A DNA stretch of 50,644 nt, from contig JAMDDE010000002.1 of the NCBI GenBank assembly GCA_023489235.1, positions 1 to 50,644 on the forward strand, read 5' to 3'. The notes under the pieces are model-generated. The model was not told the DNA's origin. It worked only from the letters and a program-made list of their open reading frames with translations, and ran no database searches. Origin of the DNA: Actinomycetota bacterium. Lineage in GTDB: Bacteria > Actinomycetota > Acidimicrobiia > Acidimicrobiales > JAMDDE01. Made by a program: the position numbers and the translations under genes. Positions 17,661 through 45,914 of this stretch are shown here, one piece after another (position 1 is the first letter of the stretch; every line of letters starts with the position of its first letter).

Positions 17661-17690
17661 AAACGTTTCAAGCAGAAACGTTTCAAGCAG
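17661..17690. repeat. 15-nt tandem duplication across the MFS stop codon
   Basis: AAACGTTTCAAGCAG occurs at 17661-17675 and directly again at 17676-17690. The second copy includes the TCA at 17683-17685, the stop of the minus-strand permease, so the duplication repeats the final codons and stop just downstream. Confidence 0.85.
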
Positions 17691-19179
17691 AGAGGGTGCT
17701 AGCCACCTTGGTTGGCGGCGTTACCACCGCCATACTTTCCTCAGAAACGTCCTCCAGGCTCCGGTGCTTTGGCTCTGGGAGAGCAACCAGGGTCAGCAGT
17801 ACGCCAATCAGTGACACTCCTGCCATCACGCCCATAACCCCTGAAATGCCAACCATCTGGAGCAGATGAGGAACCATCAGAGCACCAATGAACGCTCCTA
17901 TTTTGCCGCCAGCTGCAGATATCCCATCTCCTGCTCCCCGAATAGAGGTAGGGAACACCTCAGCTGGGTAGATGAACGTGGTTTCATTGGGGCCGAACTC
18001 TATGAAGAAATAGCTGACTCCGAAGAGCAGGAGAAACGCCCATGCACTCCTAGTTACTCCCGGTATGAGAGCAATAGCAGCAAAGGTAACGGCCATGACC
18101 AGGAATCCCTGCCACTGAATTCTCTTCCTACCTATACGATCCATTAGGCCTACCGCCAACCAATAACCGGGCAAAGCAGCTACCAAGAAGATCGCACCAG
18201 CCATTAGAATATGATCGAGCAAGGTTCCATGGGGCTGAAGTGCTTTGAGAATAAGCGGACTTGATATGGAGTTGCCATAAAAGGCTATGTCCATAAGAAA
18301 CCAGCTACCCGCTGTACCCACTAAGCGCATGAGGAAAGGGCTACCAGTCAACTTAGCTCTCTGGGGTCTAGTGGAGCTATGTCCGTTACTGACAACACTC
18401 GCAAGCATGGTATTGCCATCTAGCTGCTCAACTTGGCCTGTAACCCAACGGACGCTTTCTTCTGTAGCAGTGACATCACCCTTTACGGCCAAGTTGTATC
18501 GAGGGGTCTCCTTGATGCGACGTCGCAGGTAGATAACCGAAGCTGCTGGAACTGCCCCAAGTGCCAACATCACTCGCCAGGCAAGAGCATGGGATACGCC
18601 AGCTCCTAGAAGGATTGATGCAACCGCTGGACCTGCGAGGAGACCAAACCCTTGCATTGCAAAGACCGTACCTACCAACCGGCCTCGATCTTTACGATTG
18701 GCATACTCAGAGCTGATGACCGCGGAGGTAGCGTAGTCGCCCCCAACGCCTATTCCCACCAATACCCTGAACCCAAACAAGGCCCAGAAACTCCAAGAAA
18801 AAGCAGAGAGAACGGCTCCTAGAGTGAGTAACGATACTTCGACGCCGTACATAGCCTTACGGCCCAGCACATCCATCAGTTTGCCAAATACAAGCGCACC
18901 TACCACTGAAGCAATCAGAGATATGGAGTTCAGTAAAGAAAGCTCATTAGTGGATAGGTGCCATATTGGTGTGAGAATTGCAGTTACGGTGCCGATGATG
19001 AACAGATCGTATGCATCGGTGAAGAAACCCATGCCAGCAGTGATGACGGTTAACCAATGAAACCGCGAGATACGTGACTCATCCAACTGCTCAAAGGGTG
19101 AAGAGGAGACTCCCGCATGGCTATGCGCTCGAGTACTCACCCTCTTGCTCCATACCAAACAACTGTATCGAGCCACCAT
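17683..19179 (-). CDS. MFS transporter, phosphate:H+ symporter type
   Basis: A 12-helix major facilitator of 498 residues. GMGFFTDAYDLFIIG in helix 1, GGDYATSAVISSEYANRKDRG in the loop after helix 4, and FGPNETTFIYPAEVFPTSIR with GDGISAAGGKIGAFIG in the C-half match the phosphate:H+ symporter (PHS, Pho84-like) branch. A cytoplasmic loop of about 60 residues separates the two halves. The role as a phosphate importer is strengthened by a four-unit PHO box just upstream. The start is uncertain: ATG at 19179 gives a 38-residue polar N-terminal tail, and GTG at 19140 is an alternative. Related carriers of aromatic acids share parts of these motifs, but the GPNETTF block favours phosphate. Confidence 0.85.
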   Translation of the reverse strand: MVARYSCLVWSKRVSTRAHSHAGVSSSPFEQLDESRISRFHWLTVITAGMGFFTDAYDLFIIGTVTAILTPIWHLSTNELSLLNSISLIASVVGALVFGKLMDVLGRKAMYGVEVSLLTLGAVLSAFSWSFWALFGFRVLVGIGVGGDYATSAVISSEYANRKDRGRLVGTVFAMQGFGLLAGPAVASILLGAGVSHALAWRVMLALGAVPAASVIYLRRRIKETPRYNLAVKGDVTATEESVRWVTGQVEQLDGNTMLASVVSNGHSSTRPQRAKLTGSPFLMRLVGTAGSWFLMDIAFYGNSISSPLILKALQPHGTLLDHILMAGAIFLVAALPGYWLAVGLMDRIGRKRIQWQGFLVMAVTFAAIALIPGVTRSAWAFLLLFGVSYFFIEFGPNETTFIYPAEVFPTSIRGAGDGISAAGGKIGAFIGALMVPHLLQMVGISGVMGVMAGVSLIGVLLTLVALPEPKHRSLEDVSEESMAVVTPPTKVASTLSA

Positions 19180-19216: not shown

Positions 19217-19279
19217 AGGTTACAAACACCTGGCGTATAAGTGTACATAAAGTAAACAAACAGTGAACTTTAGCTGAAC
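19217..19279 (-). promoter_or_regulatory. PHO box (four 11-nt direct repeat units) and -10 of the phosphate permease
   Basis: Reading the minus strand, GTTCAG (19279-19274), GTTCAC (19268-19263), GTTTAC (19257-19252) and GTACAC (19246-19241) follow each other at exactly 11-nt steps, separated by AT-rich pentamers. This is the layout of PhoP/PhoB boxes (GTTCACC-type units in Streptomyces). A TAACCT -10 at 19222-19217 is placed 18 nt after the last unit, so the last unit replaces a -35, as in PhoP-activated promoters. The gene served is the phosphate-type permease starting at 19179. Confidence 0.78.
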
Positions 19280-19344
19280 TAATCGGCCTCTCGGACCTTG
19301 CATCGGTTCCAGGGTCTACACGTCCAAGCATGGCTCCCCATCGT

Positions 19345-19384
19345 GATGAAGGATAGATGAAGGATGAAGGATAGATGAAGGATA
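19345..19384 (+). repeat. GATGAAGGATA minisatellite
   Basis: Units GATGAAGGATA (19345-19355), GATGAAG (19356-19362), GATGAAGGATA (19363-19373) and GATGAAGGATA (19374-19384) follow each other without gaps. The array is short and probably slippage-prone. Confidence 0.85.
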
Positions 19385-19535
19385 GGAGTAAGGATCGTAA
19401 TCGGGGTGCAACGGTCACGAGTAGATGCGTCGCCTACGTCTACTCTGGGAGTGAGAAGTGGCATCAGTAATCAATAGTTCACACAATGTTAATGTTCCCG
19501 TAGCAAACACGAAATCATTTCCATAGATAATTTCG

Positions 19536-19571
19536 TTCAGCTTGAATCGAGCTAGCTGGAGTCAAGCTGAA
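19536..19571 (+). repeat. Perfect 10-bp inverted repeat upstream of amt
   Basis: TTCAGCTTGA at 19536-19545 pairs with TCAAGCTGAA at 19562-19571 across a 16-nt loop. It lies about 190 nt before the amt start and could be a regulator site or the stem of an RNA leader. Confidence 0.6.
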
Positions 19572-19760
19572 GCCAAGCTAGGCTCGAGCCAAGGGTAAAG
19601 CCAAGACTCAAAGTGCACTCGTGCGCAGTACGCTTGCGCTCTTCACTCACTTGCACTTTAGCTTGAAGCGACATGAGGCAATGAAATGTGCATCCGGTTG
19701 CCCAGAGTTACCAGGAAGGGCAAATGCCGGCATGTGCTTACCAACAGATGAGGAGGCGCA

Positions 19761-22128: not shown

Positions 22129-23868
22129 GTGACAAACCGTCGACACCATGCTCACCTGGATCCAGATAAACAAGAGGTAGTAGTTGAGAAGCGAGGGGGT
22201 GGAGGAGGAACGACCAAGCGTCTAGATCTCAAGCCGACCATCAGCAGAAGGCAGTTCCTAGAAGCTGGATTGGTAACTGGTGCAGCACTGTTGGCAGAGA
22301 GCTGCAGTTCACCCACTGTCAGCAGGAGTTCGTGCCCGCCTAATGCCAGCATCAACCAGATCGAGCATGTCATCATACTCATGATCGAGAACCGTTCTTT
22401 CGATCACTTCTACGGTACCTATCCCGGTGTCAGAGGTTTCTCGGATCACCCAAGTGGAGAACTTGGTGCCTTTGCCCAACCATGGAGCGAGAACACCTTC
22501 AACCCCCCCAAAGGCACGCTGCTTCCCTACCATTTGAACACCGCAGTAGGGAATGCGTCGGTCATCGGCAACGTGAATGTACCTACCCACAACTGGGCAC
22601 CACAACACATGAGTTGGGCCAACGGAAAGATGGATGCCTTTGTCACCACCCATGCACTGCAGCACTACGATACCCCTGCCTATGCACCGTTGGTAATGGG
22701 ATACTATGAACGTTCCGATCTGCCATTTTGGTATGCCTTAGCCGACCACTTCACCTTAGCGGATAATTACTACTGCTCTGTTCTGGGTCCGACCATGCCC
22801 AATCGCCTCTATGCAATGAGCGCCTCGATAGATCCGGCAGGTCTCCAAGGGGGCCCTATCTTGACGACGCCTAATATCAGTGGACCGGGATCCTCGGCAC
22901 AATTCATATTTAGCTGCTCATGGACAACCATGTTCGAGCGTTTGGAGTCCCAAGGGGTTTCCTGGAAGGTCTATCAACAACCAGGAAGTTCCGTAGGTGC
23001 CTTGCAAAGTCTGAACCTTGCCATAGCCTTCAATGCATTGCTTTATTTCAAACAATATCAAGACCCGAGTTCATCCCTCTACAAAAAGGCTTTTCTTCCT
23101 TCCTGGCCAGATGAGTTCGAGGCAGACATAGCCAAAGGAGAACTACCCGCGGTTTCATGGCTAATTCCACCCATCATTGCTTCAGCTCATCCACCAGCTC
23201 CTGCTCAGTTAGCCGCATGGATGATCTCCAGAGTAATCAATGCCTTGACTTCCAACCAGAAGATATGGGAAAAGAGCGTGCTCTTCATCACCTTCGATGA
23301 GAACGGTGGGTTCTTCGACCACGTAGTACCTCCCACGCCGGAAAGAGGAACTCCTGGAGAATGGTTGACCACCGATCCCCTTCCGGAGGCAGCGAGAGGA
23401 ATAGACGGACCGATAGGTTTGGGTTTCAGAGTGCCACTCCTCGTAGTCTCACCCTTCTCCCGAGGAGGCTTCATCAACTCCGATCCATTCGACCACACCT
23501 CGTTGCTTCGATTTCTAGAAACTCGCTTTGGTGTAGAGGTGCCCAATCTCTCCTCCTGGCGCAGGGAGATGGTTGGAGATCTAACCAGTACACTTGGCCT
23601 ACCCGACAACTCGTTGCCCAAGCTGCCTCCCGCTCCACTGGACAATCCTGATCTTCTCCGGCAGTACCCAGCAGGAAAGCCGCTGTTAAGCAAGGCATCA
23701 CCGGCAGAACCTGTAACGGTTAGCGCCCTCGAGGCAATCATGCCGCTCGCCTTCCAAACACCCGTAGTACCTCCACCACCAACTCCCCAGGTAATGCCCG
23801 GACAAGAAGGTGGAACCCCTAAACGCTTGACCCATACCTTGTGCAAGCCATCGAAGGATAGAGGATAG
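22129..23868 (+). CDS. Tat-exported phosphoesterase (phospholipase C / acid phosphatase family)
   Basis: A 579-residue member of the alkaline-phosphatase-like phosphoesterase family (PF04185 type) that includes non-specific phospholipase C and AcpA. A twin-arginine motif ISRRQFLEAG (R40, R41) precedes a hydrophobic stretch ending LLAESC (C59), so export by Tat, possibly with lipid anchoring, is likely. The core begins with EHVIILMIENRSFDHFYGTYPG (residues 79-100), the metal and nucleophile region. FITFDENGGFFDHVVPP and SPFSRGGFINSDPFDHTS are the C-terminal metal-site blocks. The C-terminus is Pro-rich. GTG start with GAGGAG about 9 nt upstream. Near a phosphate permease it may scavenge phosphate from organic esters; the substrate is not known. 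Confidence 0.88.
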   Translation: MTNRRHHAHLDPDKQEVVVEKRGGGGGTTKRLDLKPTISRRQFLEAGLVTGAALLAESCSSPTVSRSSCPPNASINQIEHVIILMIENRSFDHFYGTYPGVRGFSDHPSGELGAFAQPWSENTFNPPKGTLLPYHLNTAVGNASVIGNVNVPTHNWAPQHMSWANGKMDAFVTTHALQHYDTPAYAPLVMGYYERSDLPFWYALADHFTLADNYYCSVLGPTMPNRLYAMSASIDPAGLQGGPILTTPNISGPGSSAQFIFSCSWTTMFERLESQGVSWKVYQQPGSSVGALQSLNLAIAFNALLYFKQYQDPSSSLYKKAFLPSWPDEFEADIAKGELPAVSWLIPPIIASAHPPAPAQLAAWMISRVINALTSNQKIWEKSVLFITFDENGGFFDHVVPPTPERGTPGEWLTTDPLPEAARGIDGPIGLGFRVPLLVVSPFSRGGFINSDPFDHTSLLRFLETRFGVEVPNLSSWRREMVGDLTSTLGLPDNSLPKLPPAPLDNPDLLRQYPAGKPLLSKASPAEPVTVSALEAIMPLAFQTPVVPPPPTPQVMPGQEGGTPKRLTHTLCKPSKDRG

Positions 23869-36689: not shown

Positions 36690-37340
36690 ATGGCCGAAGA
36701 GGTCCCAGAGGAAGCAGATAACCCATATGCGGAACTGGATCGACAAGTAATTCAACTATTCGCGCTAGTTGGAGAGGCATTGGCAGGGGCAACGGTATCC
36801 CTCCTCACTTCTGACCGCGAATCCGCCAAGGAGCTGGCCAACCGCGATATCGAGATAGACCAGCGTTATAGGGCAATTGAACGGTTAGTAATCGATAGGC
36901 TATCTGCCGGGAACTACGAACCGAGTGAGCTCAGCTTCTTCGTAGGTCTTCTCTCTATGCTTCCTGAAATAGAGCGGAGTGGAGATCTGGCTGAACATAT
37001 TGCTCGTCGGGCAATTCGCTCCTTAGGGGTGGAGATGTCTCCACGATGTCGAGGCTTGGTAGAGCGTATGGGAGAGGTAGCCACTCGTATGTGGAAGATC
37101 GCCACTGATGCATATGCTGATCGTTCAACAAGCGCTTACAGCATAGTTGAAAGTTTGGATGACGAGATGGACGACTTGCACGTTACCCTCACTGCTGAAC
37201 TAGTAGGAGGATCATTGTCTCTCCCTCTAGCCATAGAGATGGCATTGATAGCTCGCTTTTACGAGCGCTTCGGAGATCACGCCGTCAATTTGGCTAGACG
37301 AGCAGCCACCCTTCAGACAGCATCTCCCAATGGCAGCTAA
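36690..37340 (+). CDS. phoU: Phosphate uptake regulator PhoU
   Basis: PhoU represses the Pho response through PhoR and the Pst transporter. The 216 residues form two PhoU three-helix repeats. The metal-binding E/DxxxD motifs lie in DLAEHIARRAI (after EIERSGD) and in ERFGDHAVNLARRA. It is not next to pst genes; the window's phosphate permease is 17 kb away and carries a PHO box, so PhoU may act on it through the two-component system. TACCGT six bases before the ATG and no ribosome site suggest a leaderless start. Confidence 0.92.
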   Translation: MAEEVPEEADNPYAELDRQVIQLFALVGEALAGATVSLLTSDRESAKELANRDIEIDQRYRAIERLVIDRLSAGNYEPSELSFFVGLLSMLPEIERSGDLAEHIARRAIRSLGVEMSPRCRGLVERMGEVATRMWKIATDAYADRSTSAYSIVESLDDEMDDLHVTLTAELVGGSLSLPLAIEMALIARFYERFGDHAVNLARRAATLQTASPNGS

Positions 37341-44327: not shown

Positions 44328-45914
44328 TCATGCCGGTAGAGATACCTTGGATGCTGTACTGTGATCATCCAGCACCTTGACCCCTCTCATTCGAGGATTC
44401 ACCTTGACCCAAATGGCTCCAGCTACTACCCACGCAGCTACGATACCGAGAGCTACATAGGCATCCAGAGAAGAGGAGCCACCAGCTTTCACTGCTAGGT
44501 AGACCACTCCAACAAACTCAGCCAAGTTCATGACCAAACCTAAGCCGGGAATTACTGAGTGCTTGATGGGATGACGATCTGCCCTACCAGCAAAGGCTAT
44601 GAGTGCAACTAGACAAGTCATGCCATAGACAAGGAACGTACCCGTATTGGAAGCCAAGGTGATCTGAGTAAGGGTGTTCACCGATTTGAGTCCGTAAATT
44701 CCAAGAAGTGCAGATATTCCTGTCAGTACCCATATGCTTGCATAAGGGGTAGCAAACTTGCCATGCAGAAACGACAGCAAGCTAGGCATTTCCTTCTCCC
44801 GTGCCATCGCATAGGTGACCCTTACCCCTGTGTTCAGACAAGCCAATGTGGTCCCGACCAAGGCGAGCAAGACCGTAGCCGCCATGATAAGAGCTAACAC
44901 TACGCCTACGCCATGACCAAAGGTCATATTGCCCATTTTGGTAACCATGTCTCCTATGGGCGCAGAGGCGTTGGCTGCTGCAGCATAACCTCCTACATAG
45001 CTCTTTCCACTGCCGGTTGATATCGTCCCTCCGCCTATCACATAGTTGGCAGCCAAATACTCAAATAAATAGCAAATAGCTCCTTGAATGATCAGAGAGA
45101 GCATGACGCCCCTCTTCACATCTCGTTCTGGGTTGCGCGCTTCTGCACCAAGAGCCGTGGCTGACTCGAATCCAACCACCAACAGTATCGCTATGGTGGA
45201 TTGGTAAAGAACAGAGAGCAAGTTATGGGGTATGATCACCCCACCAAAACCAGAGGGATGCGCATAACCGCCTGCCAAGTGCGGATGAGAGAGGCGAAAG
45301 ACGATAGCGAACACTCCAAATGCTACTAGAGCAGTGATTTGAACTACGTTGATGATAACTGCCACATTGGTGGAACCAGTTATACCTCTGTAGGCTATGT
45401 AACCCACACCACCTGCAAACAGAACAGCAATAGCGGCAAGTGGAAGAAATCCGAGTGCATGACCACCAGTAATAGTTTGATATATGTAACCGACCAATGT
45501 AGCACCAAATGCAACCATGATGCCTGGATATATCCAGTAATACAGGTGACTTATCCACCCGAATGACAACTTAGCTAAACGGGCATAACGGCGATGACGC
45601 TTCTTCTCCTTATCCAAGAAAGCTGCCTCGGCAAAGTAGTAGCTCGAGCCCGTTCCAGCCCCAGGATATATACGAGCCAGTTCTGCATAACTATATGCTG
45701 TGAACATAGCCAGTATCAATGCCAATAACAACCCTGGCCACATAGCCGGAGCAGTTGAATGAGATCCGGCTGACAAAGCTGATTGCTCAGCAAAGGTCGT
45801 CCACAAGAATGCTCCCGGAGCAATGAGCGCCATGGCATTAACCGTCACGCCAGTCAACGTAAGCGTGCGCTTCATACTCACGGGAGCTGTAGATTCAGCA
45901 TTGGCAGCATCCAC
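44328..45914 (-). CDS. Amino acid permease (APC superfamily)
   Basis: A 528-residue transporter with about 12 to 14 membrane helices. Helix 1 has LTGVTVNAMALIAPGAFLW with the unwound glycine region, helix 2-3 TAYSYAELARIYPGAGTGSSYYF, and helix 6 VGFESATALGAEARNPERDVKRGV, all APC landmarks. Substrate is unknown; it probably imports an amino acid or amine. The ATG has AAGGAGG about 12 nt upstream. It heads the operon permease-PP2C-kinase-GS, so the imported compound may be the substrate or the signal for the enzymes encoded downstream. Confidence 0.9.
   Translation of the reverse strand: MDAANAESTAPVSMKRTLTLTGVTVNAMALIAPGAFLWTTFAEQSALSAGSHSTAPAMWPGLLLALILAMFTAYSYAELARIYPGAGTGSSYYFAEAAFLDKEKKRHRRYARLAKLSFGWISHLYYWIYPGIMVAFGATLVGYIYQTITGGHALGFLPLAAIAVLFAGGVGYIAYRGITGSTNVAVIINVVQITALVAFGVFAIVFRLSHPHLAGGYAHPSGFGGVIIPHNLLSVLYQSTIAILLVVGFESATALGAEARNPERDVKRGVMLSLIIQGAICYLFEYLAANYVIGGGTISTGSGKSYVGGYAAAANASAPIGDMVTKMGNMTFGHGVGVVLALIMAATVLLALVGTTLACLNTGVRVTYAMAREKEMPSLLSFLHGKFATPYASIWVLTGISALLGIYGLKSVNTLTQITLASNTGTFLVYGMTCLVALIAFAGRADRHPIKHSVIPGLGLVMNLAEFVGVVYLAVKAGGSSSLDAYVALGIVAAWVVAGAIWVKVNPRMRGVKVLDDHSTASKVSLPA

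What the first reader, a model, noticed from the sequence alone, without database searches (positions are those of the whole stretch)
19217..19279. Four-unit 11-nt PHO box before a phosphate-type MFS permease
GTTCAG, GTTCAC, GTTTAC and GTACAC are spaced by exactly 11 nt on the permease strand with a -10 placed after the last unit. This is the geometry of PhoP/PhoB boxes and independently supports that the carrier imports phosphate. It also gives a motif to find the Pho regulon of this organism.
Basis: partly seen in the sequence, partly recalled or inferred. Interest (0 to 1): 0.55.

Follow-up and report, generated by a model that had tools for sequence, protein, structure and literature searches.

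The report
Phosphate-control box before phosphate importer
A short DNA word repeated four times at exact 11-base steps sits before a phosphate-importer-like gene in a bacterium whose relatives include acid-dwelling actinobacteria; the same kind of array stands before the same gene and before the classical phosphate-uptake operon in many relatives, so it is very probably a phosphate-starvation control switch, here in a genome where the two usual bacterial phosphate importers were not found.

Summary
The array is real: on the minus strand GTTCAG, GTTCAC, GTTTAC and GTACAC start at 19279, 19268, 19257 and 19246, exactly 11 nt apart. It is the best site of its kind in the 2.17 Mb bin (about 1e-4 expected). 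The PHO-box reading is supported: GTTYAC arrays precede 38 of 53 permease orthologues (<=4 mismatches over three units) against 0.4% of control stretches, and 8 of 9 distinct pst operons. All seven perfect hits in 22 genomes precede this permease family or pst. phoU (15 tested) and senX3/regX3 (29 tested) mostly lack it. The genome encodes a RegX3-like regulator beside a PhoR-type kinase, and PhoU; other regulators could also bind such repeats. No PstS, PstC or Pit was found, leaving two PHT1/Pho84-like symporters as the recognised phosphate importers; 6 of 20 other genomes also lack PstC and Pit. Not supported: a -10 where relatives have it, and use of the motif to find more regulon members in this genome. 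Binding and phosphate response are untested. Ordinary in kind, unusual in target and setting.

The parts
19274..19279 (-). PHO-box unit 1, GTTCAG
19263..19268 (-). PHO-box unit 2, GTTCAC
19252..19257 (-). PHO-box unit 3, GTTTAC
19241..19246 (-). PHO-box unit 4, GTACAC (unit 4 is GTACAC or GGACAC in several relatives: L049, L057, L061, L070, L071, L083)
19235..19240 (-).
   Evidence: inference
17683..19179 (-). PHT1/Pho84-like MFS permease, probable phosphate:H+ symporter (498 aa from the ATG at 19179; a GTG at 19140 behind a purine-rich stretch is an alternative start, read by eye)
36690..37340 (+). PhoU (two PF01895 stretches), presumed member of the Pho signalling set; no box upstream

Best explanation
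The array is a PHO-box type operator: an OmpR/PhoB-family response regulator, most likely the RegX3 relative encoded on contig C2 beside a PhoR/PnpS/SenX3-type kinase, binds head-to-tail on the 11-nt direct repeats when phosphate is scarce and helps RNA polymerase transcribe the PHT1/Pho84-like MFS symporter. In this genome, where neither PstSCAB nor Pit was found, this symporter and its paralogue appear to be the phosphate importers. Shown: the array, its statistics, its conservation before permease orthologues and pst operons, the presence of RegX3/PhoR-type proteins and PhoU. Inferred: binding by RegX3, activation rather than repression, phosphate as the signal, transport of phosphate by this protein.
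For: Array and chance estimate. Upstream of permease orthologues, gene strand: 29 of 53 loci of L044-L097 with <=3 mismatches over three units and 38 of 53 with <=4, against 0.05% and 0.42% of 1884 control stretches from the same loci and 0 and 1 of 53 on the opposite strand; 10 and 14 of 18 clusters at 80% protein identity, 2 and 3 of 4 at 70%. In four of five hand-picked pairs the box is better conserved than both flanks, in the fifth it ties with one flank. Before the first pst gene in 9 distinct genomes with PstS: mismatches 4,2,3,0,4,2,0,5,3. All 7 zero-mismatch hits in 22 genomes lie before this permease family (5) or pst (2). In G020 the box lies between divergent pstB and a RegX3-like gene. 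TANNNT exactly 10 nt after the last unit in 15 of 53 sites. The C2 regulator has RegX3 of M. tuberculosis as closest solved structure (280 bits; MtrA 219, PhoP 150), the highest RegX3 score of the six regulators compared; the kinase before it ranks PnpS then PhoR first, both below their cut-offs. Permease: best NCBIfam model phosphate:H+ symporter, best PDB matches plant PHT1-11 and a 'phosphate transporter' (7sp5), with DAYD, GGDY, WFLxDIAFY, FGxNxTTF and GKxGA kept. The core equals the S. coelicolor PHO motif GTTCACC in 11-nt units (PMC4415409, passages).
Against: No second strong site in this genome; its phoU, senX3-regX3 and phospholipase genes lack the box. RegX3 is also the best PDB match, at lower scores, of the regulators on C36 (211 bits) and C4 (155), and those on C58 and C30 are closest to M. 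tuberculosis PhoP (234 and 223 bits), which binds 7-bp direct repeats with 4-bp spacers (PMC4832192, abstract start in listing). NCBIfam ranks the C2 regulator first as MtrA and fourth as PhoB, all below cut-off. Five of 21 genomes, four of them with arrays before permease or pst, gave no RegX3 match at E<=1e-60 (G039, G059, G061, G062, G069). G065 and G074 carry the permease without a good array (L060, L095), and G032, G065, G074 gave no hit at <=2 mismatches. PolR of Microlunatus reads GTTCACnnnnnGTTCaC and is likened by its authors to DevR and to oxygen sensing (PMC6754071, passages). The -10 is poor.
Confidence: 0.8

Rival explanations
1. The array is a PHO-type direct-repeat operator but is read by another OmpR-family (or other) regulator, for instance the PhoP-like ones on C58 or C30, so the gene may answer to another signal.
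For: Seven Trans_reg_C proteins in the genome; two closest to M. tuberculosis PhoP, whose sites are also 11-nt direct repeats (PMC4832192, listing); a looser array lies beside the C4 regulator before a sugar-type ABC operon; no RegX3 at E<=1e-60 in 5 of 21 genomes; PolR in Microlunatus.
Against: The same array marks pst operons in relatives, and C2 has the highest RegX3 score with a PhoR-type kinase beside it.
Confidence: 0.15
2. A GlnR nitrogen box of the divergent amtB-glnK genes (GlnR sites are also 11-nt periodic; recalled).
For: The site lies in the 581-nt gap shared with amtB (19761), and a GlnR-like regulator lies next to glutamine-synthetase-like genes on C48.
Against: The recalled GlnR consensus (gTnAC-n6-GaAAC) does not fit these units; the best GlnR-like match in the gap is elsewhere and at chance level (2 mismatches; 133 of 200 shuffles reach 2 or fewer). 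The array is on the permease strand and travels with the permease: within the fetched flanks of the 80 permease loci an amtB relative was seen in one, L078.
Confidence: 0.03
3. Chance repeat without function.
For: At <=3 mismatches the 3-unit pattern is no more frequent in this genome than its reversed control (11 against 11).
Against: This site has 1 mismatch over three units and 2 over four, 1.1e-4 expected per genome, and recurs at orthologous promoters.
Confidence: 0.02

Closest known systems
Actinobacterial PHO box (PhoP of Streptomyces coelicolor; SenX3-RegX3 of mycobacteria)
   Same: 11-nt direct-repeat units with GTTCAC(C) core, several units per operator, before pst in relatives; RegX3-like regulator present
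   Different: Target here is a PHT1/Pho84-like MFS permease; no pst or pit found in the genome; its phoU and regulator genes lack the box
PHT1/Pho84/PiPT phosphate:H+ symporters (NCBIfam TIGR00887, 2A0109)
   Same: Best NCBIfam family and best PDB matches; motifs of the transport site kept
   Different: 336 bits against a naming cut-off of 610, so a bacterial relative rather than a member by that cut-off
Bacillus PhoP boxes (TTTACA/TTCACA-type 11-nt repeats; motif recalled)
   Same: Alicyclobacillus-group permease orthologues carry TTTACA/TTCACA repeats in 11-nt register at similar distance (L106, L109, L110, L112-L115, L117)
   Different: First base C, A or T instead of G in most units; only 7 of 26 loci of L098-L123 reach <=4 mismatches with the actinobacterial core

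Membership tests
PHO box | two or more 11-nt direct-repeat units with a conserved core | tested here: met
   four units, exact register
PHO box | actinobacterial core GTTCACC | tested here: met
   units GTTCAGC, GTTCACT, GTTTACT, GTACACT: one core mismatch to GTTYAC in units 1 and 4, position 7 is C or T; consensus from PMC4415409 (passages)
PHO box | same motif before bona fide Pho genes of the lineage | tested here: met
   8 of 9 distinct pst operons in relatives with <=4 mismatches, 6 of 9 with <=3
PHO box | same motif before other pho genes of the same genome | tested here: not met
   no pst found to test; phoU and senX3-regX3 lack it
PHO box | -10 about 10 nt after the last unit | tested here: inconclusive
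   true for 15 of 53 related sites; the window has no TANNNT there
PHO box | binding by the phosphorylated Pho response regulator | not testable with these tools
   needs EMSA or footprint
PHO box | induction on phosphate limitation | not testable with these tools
   needs expression data
PHS/PHT1-type phosphate:H+ symporter | passes the TIGR00887 naming cut-off | tested here: not met
   336.5 bits against 610.3; still the best NCBIfam match, the next at 143.9
PHS/PHT1-type phosphate:H+ symporter | site residues of PiPT (recalled: D45, D48, R139, Y150, Q177, W320, D324, Y328, N431, K459) | tested here: met
   identical in the printed alignment to 7sp5_A, whose numbering appears shifted by 2 (read by eye); identity of 7sp5 as PiPT and residue roles are recalled
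RegX3 | closest relative RegX3 and a linked PhoR-type kinase | tested here: met
   2oqr 280.5 bits for the C2 protein, against 211 or less for the other five compared; kinase before it with PnpS and PhoR_proteo on top
GlnR box | gTnAC-n6-GaAAC (recalled) | tested here: not met
   no match at the site; best match in the gap at shuffle level

The most novel reading that the evidence does not exclude
In a set of Acidimicrobiia-type genomes without detectable PstC and Pit, the Pho system (SenX3-RegX3 plus PhoU) has been rewired to a eukaryote-like PHT1/Pho84 proton symporter, which serves as the phosphate importer and, in place of Pst, as the flux sensor (transceptor) that informs PhoU and the kinase.
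Probability: 0.15. Interest if true: 0.75.

Novelty: new member of a known kind. Interest (0 to 1): 0.42.

Why it matters
It gives a testable regulatory tag for a little-described group of bacterial PHT1-like carriers and suggests Pho control of a proton-driven importer in genomes where no Pst or Pit was found. A 2021 review of phosphate transport in Streptomyces and related actinobacteria concludes that only Pst and Pit are universally conserved in those studied (PMC7866108, passages). Since Pst restrains SenX3-RegX3 through PhoU-like PhoY proteins in M. tuberculosis (PMC5513712, abstract), genomes that keep PhoU, a RegX3-like system and the box without Pst make it testable whether Pho sensing can work without Pst.

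Tried and rejected
Searching this genome for further boxes: with <=3 mismatches, 11 hits against 11 for the reversed control. One of them, window 38070-38043 (minus), lies inside an ABC-permease gene. The top 'PstB' hit on C23 scores 220 against a cut-off of 343 and its neighbours did not look like Pst by eye, so it was not taken as Pst.

GlnR box: rejected. Phospholipase gene at 22129 as a second Pho target: no array (6 mismatches). Box before phoU: 0 of 15 tested on the gene strand in 400 nt with <=4 mismatches; 4 of the 19 phoU loci (L242, L243, L244, L255) were not found by this genome's phoU and so not tested. One array lies on the opposite strand (L256), the strand of the neighbouring permease. 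Against this, in Conexibacter S30A1 (G069) a one-mismatch array lies about 0.5 kb upstream of phoU on its strand, with other reading frames between. Box before regX3-like genes: 1 of 20 tested with <=4 on the gene strand (L233, a second, 45%-identical copy in G074) and 1 on the opposite strand (L228, the pst box of G020); before senX3 0 of 9; seven upstreams were too short to test.

Paralogous permease of this genome (C48): a degenerate array (4 mismatches over three units) at a similar distance; suggestive only.

Literature: searches listed no paper on Pho control of a PHT1-like MFS carrier in these bacteria; I saw listings (often the top of a longer list) plus the passages or abstracts named, so this does not show absence from print.

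Full report
Observation. On the minus strand the stretch 19279-19241 reads GTTCAGCTAAA GTTCACTGTTT GTTTACTTTAT GTACAC: four hexamers starting at 19279, 19268, 19257 and 19246, exactly 11 nt apart. It scores 2 mismatches against four copies of GTTYAC; the next best non-overlapping 4-unit sites of the window score 6. In the genome bin (2.17 Mb, 80 contigs, 93% complete) it holds the only exact GTTYAC-N5-GTTYAC (the reversed control also gave one) and the only 3-unit sites with one mismatch; with up to three mismatches hits equal the control, 11 and 11. A first-order Markov model of the window predicts 1.1e-4 four-unit sites this good per genome.

The gene. The permease (17683-19179, minus) matches Sugar_tr/MFS and, among NCBIfam models, phosphate:H+ symporter TIGR00887 best (336 bits, below its 610 cut-off). 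The closest solved structures are plant inorganic phosphate transporter 1-11 and a 'phosphate transporter' (7sp5). The alignments keep DAYD, GGDY, WFLxDIAFY, FGxNxTTF and GKxGA, which hold the phosphate-site residues recalled for PiPT.

Conservation. The 80 best orthologous loci (56-75% identity) came from named genomes; more existed than the call kept. One (L078) lacks upstream sequence. On the gene strand in up to 400 nt upstream, 29 of 53 loci of L044-L097 have a 3-unit array with <=3 mismatches and 38 of 53 with <=4; the opposite strand gives 0 and 1; 1884 control stretches from the same loci give 0.05% and 0.42%. After clustering the proteins, 10 and 14 of 18 clusters (80% identity) or 2 and 3 of 4 (70%) remain. 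L044-L097 are mostly labelled Actinobacteria, Actinomycetes or Acidimicrobia, with a few other labels (L068 Acidobacteriota, L088 Bacillota). Of L098-L123 (26 loci, mostly Bacillota) 1 and 7 qualify; Alicyclobacillus-group members carry TTTACA/TTCACA repeats in the same register. Loci with 6 or more mismatches include L064, L066, L076, L079, L086, L095 and all of L098-L104. Of the 53 permease (45) and pst (8) sites with <=4 mismatches, 22 have four to seven units when units with up to 2 mismatches are allowed; in several unit 4 is GTACAC or GGACAC. In 15 of the 53 a TANNNT hexamer lies exactly 10 nt after the last unit, against at most 4 at any other offset, as expected where the regulator stands in for a -35. 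The window lacks this, so its -10 stays open.

Is it a phosphate motif? PstS over its cut-off was found in 10 of 22 searched genomes, 9 of them distinct (G070 repeats G020, G060 repeats G048). Before the first pst gene the best 3-unit scores are 4, 2, 3, 0, 4, 2, 0, 5 and 3 mismatches in G072, G063, G020, G064, G067, G071, G066, G069 and G061; the share of control stretches as good is 0 in six and 3-4% in G067, G071 and G069 (600 nt were scanned for G066, up to 400 elsewhere, and three gene starts were estimated). In G066 the site is about 550 nt before pstS. In G020 the box lies between divergent pstB and a RegX3-like gene. Of 7 zero-mismatch hits in the 22 genomes, 5 precede this permease family and 2 precede pst. 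With up to 2 mismatches there are 42 hits against 17 for the reversed control, repeated genomes included, and 3 of 22 genomes (G032, G065, G074) have none, so weaker hits are partly noise; for example G020:C12 with one mismatch is near no phosphate gene that I recognised. On the gene strand the array is missing before phoU (0 of 15 tested; 4 more loci not tested) and nearly so before regX3/senX3 (1 of 29 tested); an exception outside that 400-nt test is an array about 0.5 kb before phoU in G069. The motif therefore mainly marks phosphate importers.

Regulator. The genome has seven OmpR-type DNA-binding domains. Six were compared with solved structures. C2: RegX3 280 bits, MtrA 219, PhoP 150. 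C36: RegX3 211. C4: RegX3 155. C58 (first): PhoP 234. C30: PhoP 223. C48: PDB 8hih/8hig 137/136, which I take to be GlnR (name recalled), beside two glutamine-synthetase-like genes. The seventh, on C58 behind a KdpD-like gene, was not compared. C2 is thus the best RegX3 candidate and follows a kinase gene whose top models are PnpS and PhoR, but NCBIfam ranks C2 itself first as MtrA (260 of 300 bits needed). RegX3 matches at E<=1e-60 occur in 16 of 21 genomes; those without are G039, G059, G061, G062 and G069.

Other importers. In this bin no PstS, no PstC, no PstB over its cut-off and no Pit were found, while PhoU is present (36690-37340). Seven of 21 genomes have neither PstC nor Pit over the cut-off: G000, G032, G062, G065, G073, G074 and G075 (G032, G065 and G073 have weak PstC matches below it, and G032 a weak partial PstS match). 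G032 is one contig at 99% completeness, which argues against a gap artefact for that genome. The permease family is then the only phosphate importer recognised here (two strong matches, a third weaker one counted but not listed), an inference limited by bin completeness and by the families searched.

Mechanism. Best supported: under phosphate limitation a phosphorylated Pho regulator, probably RegX3, binds the repeats and activates the symporter gene. Shown are the array, its conservation, its link to pst and the presence of the parts; binding, signal and transport are inferred. How SenX3-RegX3 and PhoU could sense phosphate without Pst, which in M. tuberculosis restrains SenX3-RegX3 (PMC5513712, abstract), is the open point. 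In Caulobacter, uptake was uncoupled from Pst with an added transporter and two layers of response were separated (PMC11208175, abstract and section list).

Comparison. The review PMC4415409 (passages) describes PHO boxes as 11-nt direct repeats with core GTTCACC in S. coelicolor; the window site fits. PolR of Microlunatus also reads GTTCACnnnnnGTTCaC before pst, pit and ppk (PMC6754071, passages), and M. tuberculosis PhoP reads 7-bp repeats with 4-bp spacers (PMC4832192, listing), so the motif alone does not settle the regulator. The finding is a new member of a known kind on an unusual target.

Noticed in passing
L058, L060, L061, L083, L051, L054, L055, L073 (directly after the permease; a broken copy in L064): In 8 of 77 downstream regions (76 loci and the window) a stand-alone winged-helix protein resembling only the DNA-binding half of RegX3 (39-47% identity, no room for a receiver domain) is encoded directly after the permease on the same strand; the window has none. 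It could compete for or constitutively occupy the same box.
   Followed up: partly
G000:C4:4428-4455 (L033): A looser 11-nt array (ATTTAC-GTTTAC-ATTTAT) lies between an OmpR-type regulator gene and a solute-binding-protein-like gene of a sugar-type ABC operon, in the right orientation: perhaps the operator of that regulator.
   Followed up: partly
G000:C48:68887-70236 (L214): Paralogous permease, 51% identical, with a degenerate five-unit 11-nt array about 190-210 nt upstream.
   Followed up: partly
window 19340-19390 and 19540-19610: The gap between permease and amtB holds short direct repeats (GATGAAGGATA-like; AGCTGAAGCCAAGC-like) of unknown meaning (by eye).
   Followed up: no
G000:C69:38590-38617 and 44463-44490: Identical 28-nt matches about 5.9 kb apart point to a duplicated segment on contig C69.
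   Followed up: no
L201 2720-3628 and L207 5196-6017 (Conexibacter): An atypical OmpR-like regulator, about 25% identical to RegX3, sits immediately 5' of the array that precedes pst (DBS9H8) or, at about 0.5 kb, phoU (S30A1): a candidate Pho regulator for that lineage.
   Followed up: partly
window 22129-23868: Phosphoesterase of the phosphocholine-specific phospholipase C type with a Tat-like signal, near amtB-glnK, without a PHO-type array upstream.
   Followed up: partly
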